Source: Methanoculleus caldifontis (lineage in GTDB: Archaea; Halobacteriota; Methanomicrobia; Methanomicrobiales; Methanoculleaceae). From it: DNA of 64,000 nt. Location of the stretch: contig NZ_WBKO01000002.1 in NCBI RefSeq assembly GCF_032842345.1, forward strand, positions 144,208 to 208,207, written 5' to 3'. Position numbers and translations under genes: made by a program. This document shows, in pieces, positions 764 through 14,767 of this stretch (its first letter is position 1; the number at the start of each line of letters is the position of its first letter). The notes below the pieces were generated by a model that was given only the letters and a program-made list of their open reading frames with translations, made no database searches and was not told where the DNA came from.

Positions 764-3475
764 ATGGCTTCTTCCAGAACCGAAGATATCCACCGCTACT
801 GGGGCAAGTATGCCACAAACGATGGCCTTGTATGGCACCTGCTCCCCTATCACTGCCTGGATGTCGCAGCGGTCGGTAATGAACTGCTCAGGAGAGATGA
901 CCAGGTATTCCAGAAGACCGTCGGGGCGGTTCCTCTCCGTGATGAGTATGTCTGTTCGCTCATTCTATTCTTCCTTGCCGTTCACGACGTCGGGAAATTC
1001 TCCGAACGGTTCCAGGGCCTCAACACTGCACTCCAGTCCGGTCTTCAGGGTAGCGCCTGTCATATGCCATACAGTCATCACCATAGCACGATGGGCATGC
1101 TCGTCTTCATGCGGGAGATCTGGCCACAGATGCTGGATGAACATCGGCTTAGGGCAGATCGCGATGAGGATCCATTCGATCTGGAGGATCTCTTCCTTCC
1201 CTGGATACGGGCGGTGACTGGGCATCACGGGAAGCCCGTCACTGACAGCGGCACACTCTCTGACCTCTTCAGCCCGGCAGACCGGGAGGCAGCATGCGGG
1301 TTCGCACGGGCCTGCTCCGATCTGTTTCTTTCAGAGACTCCAGAAGAGCCGATCCGGTATTCAACCGAGTTGCACGAGGCTTTCACCCGAATATCCTGGC
1401 TGATCGCCGGGTTGGCTGTTTTAAGCGACTGGATAGGATCGGACTCCAATATATTCGAGTATCGCCGGGATCCGATGCCTCTTGACGAGTACTGGCAGCA
1501 CTATGCCGTACCACGGGCGAAAGAGGCGGTTGCCAGGGCGGGCGTCCTGCCATCCCTCGTGGCTCCCTTTCTGGGGATAGCATCTTTCCTTCCGGAAGGT
1601 GCAGTTCCTACACCTCTGCAGGAAGCCGCCGCGGACTGTGAACTGGCAGAGGGGCCCTGCCTCTTTATCATTGAGGATGTCACCGGGAGCGGAAAGACCG
1701 AGGCCGCACTTGCACTGACACATCGCCTCATGGAGCGCGGATCTGCCGAAGGCGTCTTCATGGCGTTGCCGACGATGGCTACCGCGAATGGCATGTACAG
1801 GCGATTCACGGAGAAGTACCGGCAATTTTTCGTTGATGGGGAACATCCCTCGCTACTCCTCTCCCACAGTGCAAGGAACCTCTCCAACCTCTGGCGCCAG
1901 TCTATCGGCCCGCAAACCGACAAGGTTGCCTCCCCTCCCGGGGAAGAAGCGGGATCGGTCGAATGTGCTGCCTGGCTTTCAGACAACCGCAAGAAATCTC
2001 TCCTCGCTGATATCGGCGTCGGCACTATAGATCAGGCACTCATGGCCGTGATGCCGCTCCACCACCAGTCGCTCCGCCTGCTCGGTCTCGCCCGGCATGT
2101 ACTGGTTGTGGATGAGGTGCATGCCTACGACGAGTATATGAACACCCTCCTTGAACGGCTATTGCAGTTCCACGCCGCTTTTGGCGGCAGTGCTATCCTG
2201 CTCTCGGCGACGCTTCCGATCAGACTCCGGGAGCGATTCGTCGCCGCTTACCGCTCAGGTCTTCAGATGCCGGCAACGCCGACACAGGAGGCCGCCTTTC
2301 CCCTGATGACAATGACATCCTCACAGGGCGTAGACGAAAGACAGGTACAGGCGAATACTCTTTCCCAGAAGACCGTTGTGGTTGAACTCACCGATAGTGA
2401 GACTGATGTAGAGGCCTATCTTGAGCGTGCTCTTCGGGATGGGCATTGCGCCTGCTGGATACGGAATACCGTTATCGATGCGGTCGAGACGTACGAGCGC
2501 CTCGCCGCACGCTGGGGAGACGAGCACGTCAAGCTCTTTCATGCCCGATTCACTACTGGCGATCGCCAGAGGATTGAGGATGATGTGCTGGCATGGTTCG
2601 GGAAGCAGAGCACAGATGCCAGCCGCAGAGGGAAGATTCTGGTAGCAACACAGGTCGTTGAACAGTCGCTGGATATTGACTTCGATGCGATGGCTACGGA
2701 TCTTGCGCCCATCGACCTGATCATCCAGCGGGCCGGGAGACTCCACCGGCACAGGGAGAGGAGAAGCGGAACTCCTGAAACGCCCGCCCTGCTCGTCCTC
2801 TCTCCCCCTCCAGTTGAGAATCCGGAAAGAGACTGGTTTACGAGCGTGTTCCCCCGAGCAGGGAGGGTATACGAGAAACACGGGCAACTCTGGCTCACCG
2901 CCCGTCTGCTTGCCGCCCGGAAACTGATTGTGATGCCTGATGACGCCCGGTCGCTGATCGAAGGTGTCTTTGGAGACGCGGTGCAGGCATCCGTTCCTGA
3001 AGCCCTCAAAGTCTGGGAGGTACAGGCAGATGGAAAAGACCGGGGACATGCGGCGCTGGCACAGATCAACGCACTGCGGCCACAGACAGGGTATGCGGAC
3101 CTGCACGGCCAGTGGGAGGATGACAGCCGGACGCCTACCCGACTTGGGGAGGCGAGTGTCACCGTCGTGCTGGCCTGTGGCGACCGGGCCGGACTTCGGC
3201 CGTGGAATGGTGCAGAGGGAGCCACCTGGGAAGGGAGTCTGGTCTCGGTGAGGGAGTCTCTGATAGCAGGCCCCATCCACTATTCGGTGGATGAAGAGCG
3301 TGAGATCGCGCGTGTAAAGCCGCTCCTGCCCGGCAGGGGGGAGGGAAGCATCCTCATTCCCCTGACCCATGTTGCAGGCGGGACATGGGAGGGGCGCGCA
3401 CGGAATCGGAAGGACAAAGAGGTGATCGTCACCTACGATTCAAAGATCGGCCTGCAAATTCGGGATGGGCGATGA
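764..3475 (+). CDS. cas3: CRISPR-associated helicase-nuclease Cas3 (type I-E)
   Basis: The 903-residue product has the full Cas3 order. The N-terminal HD nuclease shows H30, H74-D75 (AVHDVGK), a histidine cluster at 105-107 and H154-H155. The SF2 helicase follows, with Walker A VTGSGKT (306-312), DEVH box (450-453), SAT motif (481-483) and a QRAGRLHRH motif VI near 655. Cas3 is recruited by target-bound Cascade and unwinds and degrades the non-target strand. Length and motifs are intact, so the nuclease should be active. It is separated from casA by 213 nt containing the Cascade promoter, so the two units can be regulated independently. Confidence 0.97.
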   Translation: MASSRTEDIHRYWGKYATNDGLVWHLLPYHCLDVAAVGNELLRRDDQVFQKTVGAVPLRDEYVCSLILFFLAVHDVGKFSERFQGLNTALQSGLQGSACHMPYSHHHSTMGMLVFMREIWPQMLDEHRLRADRDEDPFDLEDLFLPWIRAVTGHHGKPVTDSGTLSDLFSPADREAACGFARACSDLFLSETPEEPIRYSTELHEAFTRISWLIAGLAVLSDWIGSDSNIFEYRRDPMPLDEYWQHYAVPRAKEAVARAGVLPSLVAPFLGIASFLPEGAVPTPLQEAAADCELAEGPCLFIIEDVTGSGKTEAALALTHRLMERGSAEGVFMALPTMATANGMYRRFTEKYRQFFVDGEHPSLLLSHSARNLSNLWRQSIGPQTDKVASPPGEEAGSVECAAWLSDNRKKSLLADIGVGTIDQALMAVMPLHHQSLRLLGLARHVLVVDEVHAYDEYMNTLLERLLQFHAAFGGSAILLSATLPIRLRERFVAAYRSGLQMPATPTQEAAFPLMTMTSSQGVDERQVQANTLSQKTVVVELTDSETDVEAYLERALRDGHCACWIRNTVIDAVETYERLAARWGDEHVKLFHARFTTGDRQRIEDDVLAWFGKQSTDASRRGKILVATQVVEQSLDIDFDAMATDLAPIDLIIQRAGRLHRHRERRSGTPETPALLVLSPPPVENPERDWFTSVFPRAGRVYEKHGQLWLTARLLAARKLIVMPDDARSLIEGVFGDAVQASVPEALKVWEVQADGKDRGHAALAQINALRPQTGYADLHGQWEDDSRTPTRLGEASVTVVLACGDRAGLRPWNGAEGATWEGSLVSVRESLIAGPIHYSVDEEREIARVKPLLPGRGEGSILIPLTHVAGGTWEGRARNRKDKEVIVTYDSKIGLQIRDGR

Positions 3476-3688: not shown

Positions 3689-5323
3689 ATGGTCAATCTC
3701 ATCGATGATCCATGGATACCCGTCGTGCGAAGGGACGGTACACGGGAGAGGGTCGCCCCCTGGGAGATTACCGGAGGGACCGAGCCCGTGATCCGGCTGG
3801 ATGCGCCCCGGCCGGACTTCAACGGGGCGCTTATCCAGCTCCTTATCGGCCTTACGCAGATGGCAATTCCCCCTGGTGACAACCGGGACTGGAGACGGCG
3901 GTTCAAGACGCCGCCACCTCCGGGTGAGTTAAAAGAAGCGTTTACGCCGTACTCCCACGCTTTCAATTTTGACGGTGATGGCCCGCGGTTTATGCAGGAC
4001 TATGATCTCAACGAGGGTGTAGAGAGCTCCATAGACCGACTGTTGATGGAGATGCCCGGAGAGCAGACGCTGAAGTTGAATACCGATCATTTCCTGAAGC
4101 GCGGGACAGTCAACCGGATCTGCCGGGACTGCTGTGCAATGGCTCTCTTTACGCTCCAGACAAATGCTCCGTCCGGCGGCCGGGGGCACCGAACATCGCT
4201 CCGGGGCGGAGGGCCGCTGACCACGCTGGTCACAGGCACAACCCTGTGGGAGACCGTCTGGCTGAATGTTCTTTCCCGGGATCAGTTCGAGATTCTCGGT
4301 AATGTCGCCAGAACTGCCGACCCCGACCGGTTCCCCTGGATGGGGCCGACCCGCACCAGCTCCCGGAACGAGACAACATCTCCGATCGATGTGCATCCGG
4401 CGCAGGTCTTCTTCTCCATGCCCCGCAGAATCCGGATCGACTTTGATCGTCCGGAGTCAGGGAACTGCGATATCTGCGGTTGCGGATCGGACCACCTTGT
4501 CTCACAATACTCCACAAAGGATAGCGGAGTGAACTACAAGGGGGGCTGGAAACACCCGCTTACGCCGTATTACCAGCCAAAGAACGCCGAAGAACCTCTA
4601 CCGAAGCATGGGCAGGCAGACGGAATATCGTACAGAAACTGGCTCGGGCTTGTGCAGAATGATCCTGAGAGCCGTACGCAGCCTGCGCTGGGGGTCCAGG
4701 TCTTCCGGAACGAAAGGCAACGCTTTCTGACCGATCATCTGGGCGGCTCGGCGCCGCTCTGGGCGTTTGGGTTCAAGACGGACAACATGAAGGTGGTCTG
4801 CTGGAACGAGAGCACGATGCCGCTGATCCATGTCGACGAGGCGGTCCGTGAACGATACGAAAGTGTTGTGACGGCCCTGATCAAGACTGCTGATCTCGTC
4901 GCTGGCAGCACCCGCAGTTGTATCCGGAAAGCACTCTTTGGAGACCGCAAAGATGCGGGCGGGAACATCCCCGAGGTCGATTCCCGGTTCTGGCAGGAGA
5001 CGGAGAGCGAGTTTTACGCCGTGCTGGAGGCATTACGGGAGGCAATGGAGAGAGGTGAGGATACAACCTCCCTGAAACTACAGTGGCTTTCGAGCCTCTC
5101 TCGTGAGGCCGAGGCACTCTTCGATGTCTACTCGCAGGCCGACCTTATCGGTGTCGCGAATCCGCGAAGGATTGCCCTGTCCCGGCGCATGCTCAGGAAC
5201 TACACCTCGCAGAGGAACAAGAAGATCCGTGATGCGCTCGATCTCCCCAAAGACCCTGAAGACGGCGATGCAAAGCCCGGGAGAACCCGAAAGCGCTCCG
5301 TAAGTCAAGGTGAACACCCATGA
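3689..5323 (+). CDS. casA: Cascade large subunit Cse1/CasA (Cas8e)
   Basis: This 544-residue protein begins with the Cse1 motif NLIDDPWIPV and has the family's usual length. It recognises the PAM and recruits Cas3. Two cysteine pairs, C145/C148 and C260/C263, correspond in position to the zinc site of the E. coli protein. The start has a GGTG ribosome-binding element 10 nt upstream. It heads an operon in which most genes overlap or nearly touch (casB overlaps by ATGA). The promoter upstream carries the mini-array target. Confidence 0.96.
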   Translation: MVNLIDDPWIPVVRRDGTRERVAPWEITGGTEPVIRLDAPRPDFNGALIQLLIGLTQMAIPPGDNRDWRRRFKTPPPPGELKEAFTPYSHAFNFDGDGPRFMQDYDLNEGVESSIDRLLMEMPGEQTLKLNTDHFLKRGTVNRICRDCCAMALFTLQTNAPSGGRGHRTSLRGGGPLTTLVTGTTLWETVWLNVLSRDQFEILGNVARTADPDRFPWMGPTRTSSRNETTSPIDVHPAQVFFSMPRRIRIDFDRPESGNCDICGCGSDHLVSQYSTKDSGVNYKGGWKHPLTPYYQPKNAEEPLPKHGQADGISYRNWLGLVQNDPESRTQPALGVQVFRNERQRFLTDHLGGSAPLWAFGFKTDNMKVVCWNESTMPLIHVDEAVRERYESVVTALIKTADLVAGSTRSCIRKALFGDRKDAGGNIPEVDSRFWQETESEFYAVLEALREAMERGEDTTSLKLQWLSSLSREAEALFDVYSQADLIGVANPRRIALSRRMLRNYTSQRNKKIRDALDLPKDPEDGDAKPGRTRKRSVSQGEHP

Positions 5324-8377: not shown

Positions 8378-9629
<1,252 letters not shown>

Positions 9630-9737: not shown

Positions 9738-12450
9738 GCGTTCCCCATGTACGTGGGGATGAACCGCAACAGGAAGGGGAGACTGCCAAGGGTACTAAGC
9801 GTTCCCCATGTACGTGGGGATGAACCGGTGAACGTGACCGCTGGCTCGCTGGTCTCGTAGCGTTCCCCATGTACGTGGGGATGAACCGCGCGCCAACGCC
9901 TTCGCGAGCCTCGCGCCCCTGCGTTCCCCATGTACGTGGGGATGAACCGGGGTGGATCGAGCGCAACGCCGCGACGCTGGAGCGTTCCCCATGTACGTGG
10001 GGATGAACCGAGCGTATCCTCGCCCGGACCCCGGTCGGTAACGCGTTCCCCATGTACGTGGGGATGAACCGATCATCGACGCCGGGTGGGGCTCGGCGGG
10101 ATAGCGTTCCCCATGTACGTGGGGATGAACCGGTCATCATCGTGTTCGGGTCGGTGCGTCCGTCGCGTTCCCCATGTACGTGGGGATGAACCGTTCCCTG
10201 CCCCGGTGCCGAGGTTCGTGACCCGGCGTTCCCCATGTACGTGGGGATGAACCGTTGGCCTCACTCACGGAGGGTATGGAGGAGAAGCGTTCCCCATGTA
10301 CGTGGGGATGAACCGCAGGCGTCGACGCGCCCGACCTCATCGAGCATGCGTTCCCCATGTACGTGGGGATGAACCGGGTTAAAATGCCATGTGTGGCATG
10401 TGTGGTATGCGTTCCCCATGTACGTGGGGATGAACCGACATCGCAGTCGGTCCACCCGATGGGAAATCCGCGTTCCCCATGTACGTGGGGATGAACCGGC
10501 AAACGGCTGCTCCCGGGAACAGGTCATAGAGCGTTCCCCATGTACGTGGGGATGAACCGATCGTCGCCCGCGTCAACGGGGCGAACCAGGGGCGTTCCCC
10601 ATGTACGTGGGGATGAACCGCCAGTCGTAGGCCCCGCCGGTGACGGGAGAGAGCGTTCCCCATGTACGTGGGGATGAACCGAGTGTCGACGCGCTACTTC
10701 AGCGGATGTTGCGGCGTTCCCCATGTACGTGGGGATGAACCGATTGACGGGCGGAGGGGATACTGATGGTGCTCGCGTTCCCCATGTACGTGGGGATGAA
10801 CCGAGGGAGTCCAAACAATTCCCGCCTCCGGAGATGCGTTCCCCATGTACGTGGGGATGAACCGAGGAGAGCCAGCGGCATGTGAGGGTGCAGCACGCGT
10901 TCCCCATGTACGTGGGGATGAACCGGTGTTAATGATGGGTTGCACGACAATTACCAGGCGTTCCCCATGTACGTGGGGATGAACCGGCCCCGACGGCGTT
11001 CCACCGGCTCGCCTCATCGCGTTCCCCATGTACGTGGGGATGAACCGAGAGTATCGACTGGACCGGCAAGCGGCTTGTCGCGTTCCCCATGTACGTGGGG
11101 ATGAACCGGACGGCGCTGCGTGAATATACTTGCAGGTAATGCGTTCCCCATGTACGTGGGGATGAACCGTCTTGAGGGTCATCGCCGCCCCTCCCGGATC
11201 CGCGTTCCCCATGTACGTGGGGATGAACCGGATCTTCTGGCTCACGCGATCCTGCAGAGATAGCGTTCCCCATGTACGTGGGGATGAACCGCGCGAGGCT
11301 TTACGGGGAGAAAATCATTTTTCGCGTTCCCCATGTACGTGGGGATGAACCGCGATGACGAGTTTTTCGTCCTCTGCGAGAATCGCGTTCCCCATGTACG
11401 TGGGGATGAACCGGGACCGGTGACGAGGAGCGGGCAGGAGACCGTGCGTTCCCCATGTACGTGGGGATGAACCGACGATGAAATAGCCAATCGCCGCAAT
11501 AGTGACGCGTTCCCCATGTACGTGGGGATGAACCGGGCGCTATCGGGCTCGGCTCCCACCTCGTCATGCGTTCCCCATGTACGTGGGGATGAACCGGAGC
11601 ATACGGGCGGCTGGGGCGGCAAGCCGCCGCGTTCCCCATGTACGTGGGGATGAACCGGCGCTTATTCGTCCGCTATCGCGTTTTTGAATGCGTTCCCCAT
11701 GTACGTGGGGATGAACCGGCGGCAGCAAAAATCAACGGCATGTGGCGCGTGCGTTCCCCATGTACGTGGGGATGAACCGTATCGCAGGCTCGCCGAGGAC
11801 CGCGCGGAAGTGCGTTCCCCATGTACGTGGGGATGAACCGGACACGGACATCGCCAACCCGGAGGGCTACGGGCGTTCCCCATGTACGTGGGGATGAACC
11901 GGACACGGACATCGCCAACCCGGAGGGCTACGGGCGTTCCCCATGTACGTGGGGATGAACCGGCTTTGATCTCCGCCGTCATCGAGGCGTCGGCGTGTTC
12001 CCCATGTACGTGGGGATGAACCGTACGGCCGGTGTGGCGCGGTTGGTTCGTGGCTGCGTTCCCCATGTACGTGGGGATGAACCGCACTCGTCTGAATTCC
12101 TCGGCACGACCGGCACGCGTTCCCCATGTACGTGGGGATGAACCGTCTCCGCTCTCCTGTAGCCGAGCACGATACCGGCGTTCCCCATGTACGTGGGGAT
12201 GAACCGATAGAGACCCTTGGTGTCGCCGGTATTGCCGGGCGTTCCCCATGTACGTGGGGATGAACCGGTGTAAACAATGGCAGCAGCAAAAATCAACGGG
12301 CGTTCCCCATGTACGTGGGGATGAACCGAACCCGGAGTTCAGGGCGCTTGTAGACCAGATGCGTTCCCCATGTACGTGGGGATGAACCGAACGAGTTCGC
12401 AACAGAGCTCACCAAGCGGCTGCGTTCCCCATGCACATGGGGACAAACCG
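9738..12450 (+). CRISPR. Type I-E CRISPR array, 45 repeats and 44 spacers
   Basis: Repeats of 29 nt begin GCGTTCCCC and end GGGGATGAACCG; CCCCAT and GTGGGG form the hairpin with loop GTAC. The period is exactly 61 nt throughout, giving 32-nt spacers. Repeat 38 (11995) has C2 changed to T, and the last repeat (12422-12450) has four substitutions, marking the trailer end. Spacers 35 and 36 (11841-11872 and 11902-11933) are identical. Spacers 33 (11719-11750) and 42 (12268-12299) share about 20 nt with one mismatch. The reverse strand gives spurious ORFs rich in VHPHVHGER and SSPRTWGT, which are translated repeats. Confidence 0.99.
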
Positions 12451-12563
12451 GCAGGCTCACACACCGCACAGTATTCCGCCGGCCCTTCGCTACCCCCGGA
12501 GCGTCGAACACTCTTCTCCGGCCTGCCCCCTCTCAAACCCGGAAAGGCACACCATAACCCCTT

Positions 12564-13136
12564 CTACCTGAGAACACCCCGCCGCTTCAGCTCGAAGAAA
12601 CACCGGGCGCATGCGGCGGCATCGTTGCCGGCGTCGTGGGCGCCGGGATACGCCGACCCGAAGAGCGCCCGGTGCAGTTCCGTCAGCGTCGGCCACTTCA
12701 GCCCTCCCGGCCGCCGGATCCCGCAGAACTTGACGGATGCCTCCATGGTGCAGATCGAAGATATGCCGGAGAGCGGGTTTATTACCCCGCTTCTCGCGCA
12801 CTCGGCGGCGACCACCCCTCCGTCGAACGTCATATTATGTGCCACGACGGCACTGCTCTGTATCGCATCCAGCCTGAACGCGTCGAGCACAGCCCGGAGG
12901 GGGACACCCGACCGCATCGCCGCTCTGGTGGTGATGCCGTGGACCCTCACGGCTTCCGGCGGGATCGTGAACCCCTCCGGACGGATGATGAAACATTCCC
13001 GCCGGGCGATGTTCCCGCTCTCCTCGCAGAGGAGCCACGCGATCTGGACCAGCCGCGGCCAGGCCCGCGTGTCGTCTCCCGGCGCGTTCCTGTACAGAGG
13101 GAGCCCGGCGGTCTCCGTATCGAAGAAGAGGTGCAT
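12564..13136 (-). CDS. DnaQ-like 3'-5' exonuclease (DEDDh family)
   Basis: The core opens LFFDTETAGLP (exonuclease motif I, DxE), has VAHNMTFDGGVV (motif II Asp) and HDAGNDAAA (motif III H-x4-D), so all four DEDDh acidic residues and the histidine are present. ATG 13136 is chosen because motif I follows within eight residues, as is usual; an upstream ATG at 13193 would add 19 low-complexity residues. The gene is convergent with the CRISPR array and ends 114 nt from its last repeat. DnaQ-type exonucleases trim prespacers in several type I-E systems, so a role in adaptation is possible, but general DNA metabolism is equally open. Confidence 0.85.
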   Translation of the reverse strand: MHLFFDTETAGLPLYRNAPGDDTRAWPRLVQIAWLLCEESGNIARRECFIIRPEGFTIPPEAVRVHGITTRAAMRSGVPLRAVLDAFRLDAIQSSAVVAHNMTFDGGVVAAECARSGVINPLSGISSICTMEASVKFCGIRRPGGLKWPTLTELHRALFGSAYPGAHDAGNDAAACARCFFELKRRGVLR

Positions 13137-14062: not shown

Positions 14063-14767
14063 TCAGGCCGTCAGGGGGGTAAACGACTCCTCGCTCACGA
14101 CGGTGCCGGTGCAGGCGCCTTCGACGATCGCCCGGTAGAGGTTCTCCGGGTCACGGCCGTCAAGCACCAGAAGGGGGATCCCGGACCGCTCGATGACCTT
14201 TCCCGCCACGATGTCGAGGACTATGTTGGCACCCGCGTCCAGCCGGCTCCGGGTGATGATATCGAGGAGCTCCTGCGGGGTGAGGTGCTCATATCTCACC
14301 GCATCGACGTCCTTCTTCGGATCTGCGCTGTAGATGCCGTCGATAGACGTGGCATTGATGAGGAGATCGGCGCCGATGCTCTCCGCGAGGACCGCCGAGA
14401 CCGCGTCGGTCGTCTGCGCGGGGGTGATGCCGCCCATCACAACGATCTTGCCGGTCTCCGCGAACTCCCGTGCCTCCGTATAGTTCTCCGCAACGCGTGG
14501 ATAGGCCGCATCCTCGAGTCCGGCGATGAGGAGACGCGCGTTTAACCGGGTCACCAGGATGCCGAGTTCGTCCGCCGTCGCCTCGCCGGCACCGAGACCG
14601 CGGGCGACCTGGATGTACCGGCGCGCCTCTCCGCCGCCGCCGACCACGACGAAAATCCTGCATTTTTCGGCAATCTTTTTCAAAACAGAGACGTACCGGC
14701 TTATATTATTCGATTCGAGCGAAGGGACCAGAACCGAGCCGCCCAGGGATATTACAATCTTCTTCAT
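14063..14767 (-). CDS. pyrH: Uridylate kinase (archaeal UMP kinase)
   Basis: The 234-residue protein has the amino-acid-kinase fold start MKKIVISLGGSVLVP, the glycine-rich VVVGGGGEARRY, and INATSIDGIYSADPKK. It phosphorylates UMP to UDP in pyrimidine nucleotide synthesis. It is divergent from a small zinc-ribbon gene 41 nt away, and both would use the short AT-rich region between them. Several other pyrimidine genes (pyrC, pyrE, carA, carB) occur elsewhere in the window as separate units. Confidence 0.95.
   Translation of the reverse strand: MKKIVISLGGSVLVPSLESNNISRYVSVLKKIAEKCRIFVVVGGGGEARRYIQVARGLGAGEATADELGILVTRLNARLLIAGLEDAAYPRVAENYTEAREFAETGKIVVMGGITPAQTTDAVSAVLAESIGADLLINATSIDGIYSADPKKDVDAVRYEHLTPQELLDIITRSRLDAGANIVLDIVAGKVIERSGIPLLVLDGRDPENLYRAIVEGACTGTVVSEESFTPLTA

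What the first reader, a model, noticed from the sequence alone, without database searches (positions are those of the whole stretch)
12564..13136. DEDDh exonuclease gene next to the CRISPR array: possible prespacer-trimming partner
Some type I-E systems have a DnaQ domain fused to Cas2, and host DEDDh exonucleases can trim prespacer 3' ends before integration. Here Cas2 has no such fusion, but a complete stand-alone DEDDh exonuclease lies 114 nt beyond the last repeat. Proximity may be coincidental, as nth follows on the same strand and suggests a DNA-repair neighbourhood.
Basis: partly seen in the sequence, partly recalled or inferred. Interest (0 to 1): 0.6.

Follow-up and report, generated by a model that had tools for sequence, protein, structure and literature searches.

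The report
CRISPR-linked DEDDh exonuclease in Methanoculleus
A small DNA-trimming enzyme gene beside a CRISPR array in a methane-producing archaeon recurs in most type I-E CRISPR loci of its order, so it is probably a helper of that immune system and not a chance neighbour.

Summary
An intact DEDDh (DnaQ/RNase_T, PF00929) exonuclease gene lies 114 nt beyond the last, degenerate repeat of a type I-E array.

The link to CRISPR is not an accident of the nth neighbourhood. In the order, 21 of 29 type I-E loci with enough flank carry this family: 12 beyond the array, 9 directly upstream of cas3 (one of them decayed). No other non-cas family recurs in more than 4. In Methanoculleus it is the only PF00929 exonuclease of the genome. 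nth stays beside pyrH with or without it. Two genomes keep a piece of it beside nth without Cas1e, and that piece is truncated.

Trimming of prespacer 3' ends is the likeliest role, but nothing here shows it. Five fully visible I-E loci of the order lack the gene beside them, and 17 I-E genomes outside the order have none near their Cas1e, so I-E does not need it. Array spacing does not differ.

PADLOC already holds a CRISPR-associated 'DEDDh' model that this protein matches: a new member of a known kind, with unusually strong linkage evidence.

The parts
   Evidence: AlphaFold2 model of the 190 aa version, mean pLDDT 96.9
9740..12451 (+). type I-E CRISPR array, 45 repeats, strict 61 nt period; leader side next to cas2 (inferred), degenerate terminal repeat on the exonuclease side
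12424..12451 (+). degenerate terminal repeat, 114 nt beyond the 3' end of the exonuclease gene
764..3475 (+). cas3 (type I-E)
   Evidence: cas3_core 234 bits; PRK09694 533 bits, under its cut-off of 569
3689..5323 (+). cse1/casA
   Evidence: TIGR02547
5320..5826 (+). cse2/casB
   Evidence: TIGR02548
5848..6951 (+). cas7/casC
   Evidence: TIGR01869
6893..7690 (+). cas5/casD
   Evidence: TIGR01868
7525..8367 (+). cas6e/casE (mechanical ORF; the true start probably lies further in, as the match covers residues 53-277)
   Evidence: PF08798, TIGR01907
8378..9289 (+). cas1e
   Evidence: TIGR03638 380 bits
9270..9629 (+). cas2e, 119 aa, no exonuclease fusion
   Evidence: TIGR01873
13275..13928 (-). 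nth, endonuclease III: flanking host gene, not part of the module
14063..14767 (-). pyrH, archaeal UMP kinase: flanking host gene

Best explanation
[quoted passage not shown] It encodes a soluble DEDDh 3'-to-5' DNA exonuclease that most likely works in trans with Cas1-Cas2, trimming the 3' overhangs of captured prespacers (including delayed removal of the PAM-side end) before integration. This would be the job done by the DnaQ/DEDDh domain fused to Cas2 in some bacterial I-E systems, or by Cas4 in other types. Shown here: intact exonuclease fold (predicted) and catalytic residues, purifying selection, recurrence inside I-E loci of the order, and decay in the three genomes of the genus that keep the gene without array and Cas1e. 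Inferred: that the substrate is prespacer DNA and that it acts with Cas1-Cas2.
For: Recurrence: 21 of 29 I-E loci of the order with enough flank hold the family; no other non-cas, non-antisense family is in more than 4. 9 of the 21 lie directly upstream of cas3 on its strand, about 60-90 nt away (G214 about 350; G126 decayed); 12 lie beyond the array. Genome level: 26 of 37 Cas1e genomes have it against 37 of 195 others (Fisher p 2e-9, not corrected for kinship). Pairwise distances follow Cas proteins (Mantel r 0.61-0.86, 18-20 loci) better than taxonomic family (r 0.42). G122, of another family, carries a closely similar module including the gene. Genes in the genus without array are truncated (G003, G032) or frame-shifted near the end (G030). 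In Methanoculleus every PF00929 match is this gene (10 of 35 genomes); in 17 of the 21 loci's genomes the linked gene is the only one. Best structural matches by Z: S. thermophilus DGCC 7710 DnaQ domain 8h2f/8h18, Z 21.6, rmsd 2.0, 166 aligned, tied with Pol III epsilon at 21.3.
Against: No experiment. Five fully visible I-E loci of the order lack it in the locus (G063, G154, G196, G197, G213). None of 17 Cas1e genomes outside the order has a family member at 1e-12, and 12 of them have no PF00929 protein at all, yet the arrays seen there look normal. Spacing is 61 nt with or without it. No trade-off with Cas4: over cut-off in 8 of 21 exo-linked, 7 of 16 other Cas1e genomes of the order and 10 of 17 outside; the window's own genome has a Cas4. 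Four genomes keep an intact gene beside only one to a few I-E repeats without an I-E locus there (G046, G047, G080, G213). The structural match to the Cas2-type DnaQ domain is tied with housekeeping exonucleases.
Confidence: 0.55

Rival explanations
1. Interference helper: the exonuclease digests single-stranded DNA made by Cas3 during target destruction, and feeds adaptation only indirectly.
For: In 9 of 21 loci it is directly upstream of cas3 on the same strand; Foldseek's top rows are the ssDNA exonucleases ExoI and RNase T.
Against: In the other 12 loci it is beyond the array, far from cas3; none of the 18 I-E loci seen outside the order has it.
Confidence: 0.2
2. Passenger with its own antiviral or nucleic-acid role that is carried along with mobile I-E modules and has no biochemical contact with them.
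For: Intact copies persist in G046, G047, G080 and G213 beside only one to a few repeats; the family is common and unlinked elsewhere (none of the genome-contig loci outside Methanoculleus, 55 of 58, shows I-E cas genes or an I-E array).
Against: No other passenger recurs in more than 4 of 29 loci; two distinct positions within the locus; loss or decay with the array in 3 genomes.
Confidence: 0.17
3. RNA role: 3' trimming of crRNA or of array transcripts, as DEDDh enzymes such as RNase T and 3'hExo act on RNA.
For: RNase T and 3'hExo are among the structural neighbours; the gene is convergent with the array in 11 of the 21 loci.
Against: Type I-E crRNAs are known to keep their 3' hairpin (recalled); the RNA of the 149 nt downstream of the window gene shows no unusual folding (z 0.39).
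Confidence: 0.05
4. Ordinary DNA-repair gene of an nth neighbourhood; closeness to CRISPR is coincidental.
For: In the window and in 5 other Methanoculleus genomes it lies beside nth.
Against: 24 of 30 nth loci fetched have no such gene alongside; the 4 intact copies beside nth all have an I-E array on the other side; in G025, G012 and G033 and in the loci of other genera nth was not seen beside it.
Confidence: 0.03

Closest known systems
Cas2-DnaQ/DEDDh fusion of type I-E (S. thermophilus DGCC 7710; Megasphaera trimmer-integrase, PMC10284694)
   Same: Type I-E, DEDDh exonuclease with the same fold (Z 21.6 to 8h2f/8h18; that these entries are the Cas2 domain is inferred from strain and residue numbering, and PMC8616872, passages read, says the fusion exists in S. 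thermophilus)
   Different: Separate gene, not fused; only 19% identity over the structural alignment; tied in Z with Pol III epsilon and DinG; no Cas2-fusion entry among 23 sequence matches at E up to 1
Stand-alone CRISPR-associated 'DEDDh' ancillary proteins (PADLOC PDLC01247; [quoted passage not shown]
   Same: Matches the model at 1.9e-24 over residues 3-180; sits in a CRISPR-Cas locus
   Different: Here studied in one subtype of one archaeal order, at two recurrent positions, and the only PF00929 enzyme of the genus
E. coli DnaQ (Pol III epsilon) and ExoT (RNase T), host trimmers of prespacers
   Same: Same superfamily and fold; in vitro trimming of Cas1-Cas2-bound DNA reported (PMC9699676, passages)
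   Different: Those are housekeeping genes and not essential for prespacer 3' ends in vivo (PMC9699676, passages); this one is locus-linked
Cas4
   Same: Would fill the same processing step
   Different: Unrelated nuclease fold (recalled); presence of Cas4 in the genome does not anticorrelate with the gene

Membership tests
DEDDh (DnaQ/RNase_T, PF00929) exonuclease | profile match over the full domain | tested here: met
   35.4 bits, cut-off 24, profile 2-164 of 164
DEDDh (DnaQ/RNase_T, PF00929) exonuclease | five catalytic residues D-E-D-H-D | tested here: met
   D6, E8, D105, H167, D172 invariant in 30 sequences
DEDDh (DnaQ/RNase_T, PF00929) exonuclease | 3'-5' exonuclease activity | not testable with these tools
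   needs biochemistry
CRISPR-associated DEDDh (PADLOC) | match to the family model | tested here: met
   PDLC01247, 1.9e-24
CRISPR-associated DEDDh (PADLOC) | location in CRISPR-Cas loci beyond chance | tested here: met
   21 of 29 I-E loci of the order; 0 of 17 Cas1e genomes outside the order
Cas2-DEDDh fusion (trimmer-integrase) | exonuclease domain in one chain with Cas2 | tested here: not met
   cas2 ends at 9629, 119 aa; exonuclease is a separate gene on the other strand
Cas2-DEDDh fusion (trimmer-integrase) | trims Cas1-Cas2-bound prespacers | not testable with these tools
   needs biochemistry
nth-linked DNA repair gene | stays intact beside nth when CRISPR is absent | tested here: not met
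   G003 and G032 keep it beside nth without array or Cas1e, but truncated; 24 of 30 nth loci have none

The most novel reading that the evidence does not exclude
In Methanomicrobiales the I-E locus has a dedicated ninth gene: an in-trans DEDDh trimmer that docks on Cas1-Cas2 and sets 3' ends and insertion orientation. It would be a Cas4-like function met by a separate exonuclease subfamily that travels with the locus, either as the gene before cas3 or as the gene closing the old end of the array.
Probability: 0.42. Interest if true: 0.7.

Novelty: new member of a known kind. Interest (0 to 1): 0.52.

Why it matters
Which enzymes make prespacer 3' ends in the Cas4-less type I-E system of E. coli was still called 'yet to be determined' in 2022 (PMC9699676, passages), as E. 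coli has at least 13 3'-5' nucleases that may stand in for one another. Methanoculleus offers a simpler setting: one PF00929 exonuclease per genome, genetically tied to the I-E locus, with natural relatives that lost both. A clear yes or no on in-trans trimming could be had there.

Tried and rejected
Independent recruitments: the first tree (125 rows) needed 8 changes of the linked label, and I took this for several separate captures. With repeat remnants scored and long branches dropped (79 rows) only 3 changes were needed, and one clade of all linked and remnant copies was not rejected (p-AU 0.68). I no longer claim independent origins.

Spacer length as a footprint of trimming: the 61 nt period dominates in both groups; uninformative.

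Substitute for Cas4: no pattern.

Hairpin or terminator downstream of the window gene: no unusual RNA fold. A repeat-like sequence lies within about 200 nt 3' of the gene in most array-side copies; in G093 it is only a two-mismatch match, no better than the background of 129 such matches in 1.39 Mb, so G093 counts as undetermined.

Sequence kinship to the Cas2-fused exonucleases: no Cas2-fusion entry among 23 PDB sequence matches at E up to 1; the fold is shared but tied with others.

Literature: searches (openly licensed papers only; listings read) showed nothing on this link in Methanomicrobiales; Drabavicius 2018 is not held.

Rows left out: of 37 Cas1e genomes in the order, 8 (G014, G021, G092, G094, G116, G150, G199, G212) were left out of the 29 because contigs end at the locus. 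Among the 29, three negatives (G163, G153, G171) are visible on one side only. Two positives (G177, G112) rest on two contigs: for G112 the contig ends carry the same sequence; for G177 a contig starting with a cas3 fragment holds the gene. One second copy in the linked clade (G167, contig C7) is unlinked and looks incomplete.

Full report
WHAT IS THERE. The order is therefore Methanomicrobiales (established taxonomy, recalled). On the plus strand run cas3, cse1, cse2, cas7, cas5, cas6e, cas1e, cas2e and then an array of 45 repeats with a strict 61 nt period. The last repeat is degenerate, which marks the old end. 114 nt beyond it, on the minus strand, ends a DEDDh exonuclease gene. Catalytic residues are intact, the AlphaFold2 model of the 190 aa version has mean pLDDT 96.9, and dN/dS is 0.19-0.23 over all 6 pairs of the four nearest genes.

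NTH OR CRISPR. Of 35 Methanoculleus genomes, 11 have the family, 6 a true Cas1e, 34 an nth-family match. Of 30 nth loci fetched, 6 have the exonuclease alongside. The four intact ones (G000, G026, G028, G029) have an I-E array on the other side. The other two (G003, G032) have no Cas1e over cut-off and no array; their gene is cut after about residue 122, loses the third exonuclease motif, and runs into a DUF1016-like frame. In G025, G012 and G033 the gene lies beside an I-E array with no nth nearby. So the gene follows the array. G012, G028 and G033 have no Cas1e at 1e-30, but their contigs end in or soon after the array.

ORDER-WIDE SURVEY. In 232 genomes of the order, 37 have Cas1e at 1e-30 and 63 the exonuclease at 1e-20, 26 both; Fisher p 2e-9, not corrected for kinship. 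I fetched the Cas1e loci. Of 37, 8 end at contig edges. Of the other 29, 21 hold the exonuclease: in 11 it lies beyond the array and points towards it, in 1 (G115) beyond the array on the cas strand, and in 9 it is the gene directly upstream of cas3 on its strand. One of these nine, G126, is decayed. As a control I clustered all open frames of the 29 loci: the eight cas families recur in 25 to 29 loci, the exonuclease in 21, and the other recurrent clusters are frames antisense to cas genes or to the exonuclease (judged by position) or occur in at most 4 loci, such as the amrS-like neighbour. Five loci with both sides in view lack it beside the locus: G063, G154, G196, G197, G213.

REMNANTS AND DECAY. 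Four genomes without I-E genes at that place keep an intact gene with exact I-E repeats within about 300 nt: G046 and G047 with one repeat each, G080 with degenerate repeats and one exact, G213 with two. G093 is undetermined, and G014 ends at the contig edge. Apart from these and G112, near-repeat matches beside unlinked copies all carry two mismatches, at about background density. The gene in G030, which has no repeat nearby, is frame-shifted near its end.

DESCENT. Exonuclease distances follow those of Cas proteins (Mantel r 0.61 for Cas2 to 0.86 for Cas6e; 18-20 loci; 0.42 for taxonomic family). G122, of family f5, has a module close to that of G014/G025 of family f1 (Cas1 98%, exonuclease 84-85%), so the module seems to have moved with the gene. 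The linked and remnant copies may form one clade (p-AU 0.68); I do not claim repeated recruitment.

LIMITS. Outside the order the picture reverses. Of 392 genomes drawn from the phylum, 34 have Cas1e, 17 of them outside the order. In none of 18 I-E loci of these 17 was the gene seen, although some array ends were out of view. None of the 17 genomes has the family at 1e-12; 5 have some PF00929 protein, none near Cas1e, and 12 have none. Of 58 relatives found in genome contigs, three are Methanoculleus; none of the other 55 showed I-E cas genes or an I-E array nearby. So neither does I-E require this enzyme, nor does the wider family belong to CRISPR. Spacer length uniformity and Cas4 presence do not separate loci with and without it.

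MECHANISM. DEDDh domains fused to Cas2 trim prespacer 3' ends and remove the PAM in the Megasphaera system, and its authors expect unfused host exonucleases to do likewise in trans (PMC10284694, passages read). In E. coli, DnaQ and ExoT trim in vitro but are not essential in vivo (PMC9699676, passages). The present enzyme has the right fold: its best solved match is the S. thermophilus DGCC 7710 DnaQ domain (Z 21.6, rmsd 2.0, 166 aligned), in a tie with Pol III epsilon and DinG. In Methanoculleus it is the only PF00929 exonuclease. From this I infer in-trans trimming of prespacers as the likeliest job, with help to Cas3 as the main rival. Neither step is shown.

COMPARISON WITH THE KNOWN. The protein matches the PADLOC model 'DEDDh', labelled CAS-associated, and stand-alone DEDDh proteins are described as widespread ancillary components (PMC10284694, passages). 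The kind is known. What is added is the survey: one subtype, one order, two positions, majority presence, and decay with the array. The 2025 classification paper (PMC12669027, term search of the main text) has no occurrence of DEDDh, DnaQ or exonuclease.

Noticed in passing
window 11841 and 11902; 11719 and 12268: Two adjacent spacers of the array are identical, and two others share GCAGCAAAAATCAACGG, so they may stem from one target region.
   Followed up: no
L232 (G046) about 9510; L233 (G047) about 10099: A single exact I-E repeat stands 69-77 nt downstream of an intact exonuclease gene, in the gene's own orientation, in genomes without Cas1e at 1e-30. In the convergent array-side copies the repeats lie in the opposite orientation.
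   Followed up: partly
L302 and L303 (G511), also L293, L295, L306: One genome holds two I-E loci with Cas1 equally close to the window's (72%) but effectors at roughly 44-65% in one and 25-51% in the other, which suggests exchange of effector modules behind one adaptation module.
   Followed up: no
window 9566-9629 (end of cas2): Cas2 of the G000/G026/G029 lineage is 119 aa with an acidic C-terminal tail; most others in the order are 94-108 aa, with longer tails in G104, G108 and G213. Possible contact site, untested.
   Followed up: no
L138 about 9890-10200; L139 about 9900-10220: In G003 and G032 the truncated exonuclease runs into a DUF1016_N (YhcG-like, name recalled) frame, as if another island gene replaced the I-E module.
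   Followed up: partly
L204 (G104) and L214 (G108), just upstream of the exonuclease gene: I-E repeats also lie 59-95 nt upstream of the exonuclease, so it sits between an array and cas3.
   Followed up: no
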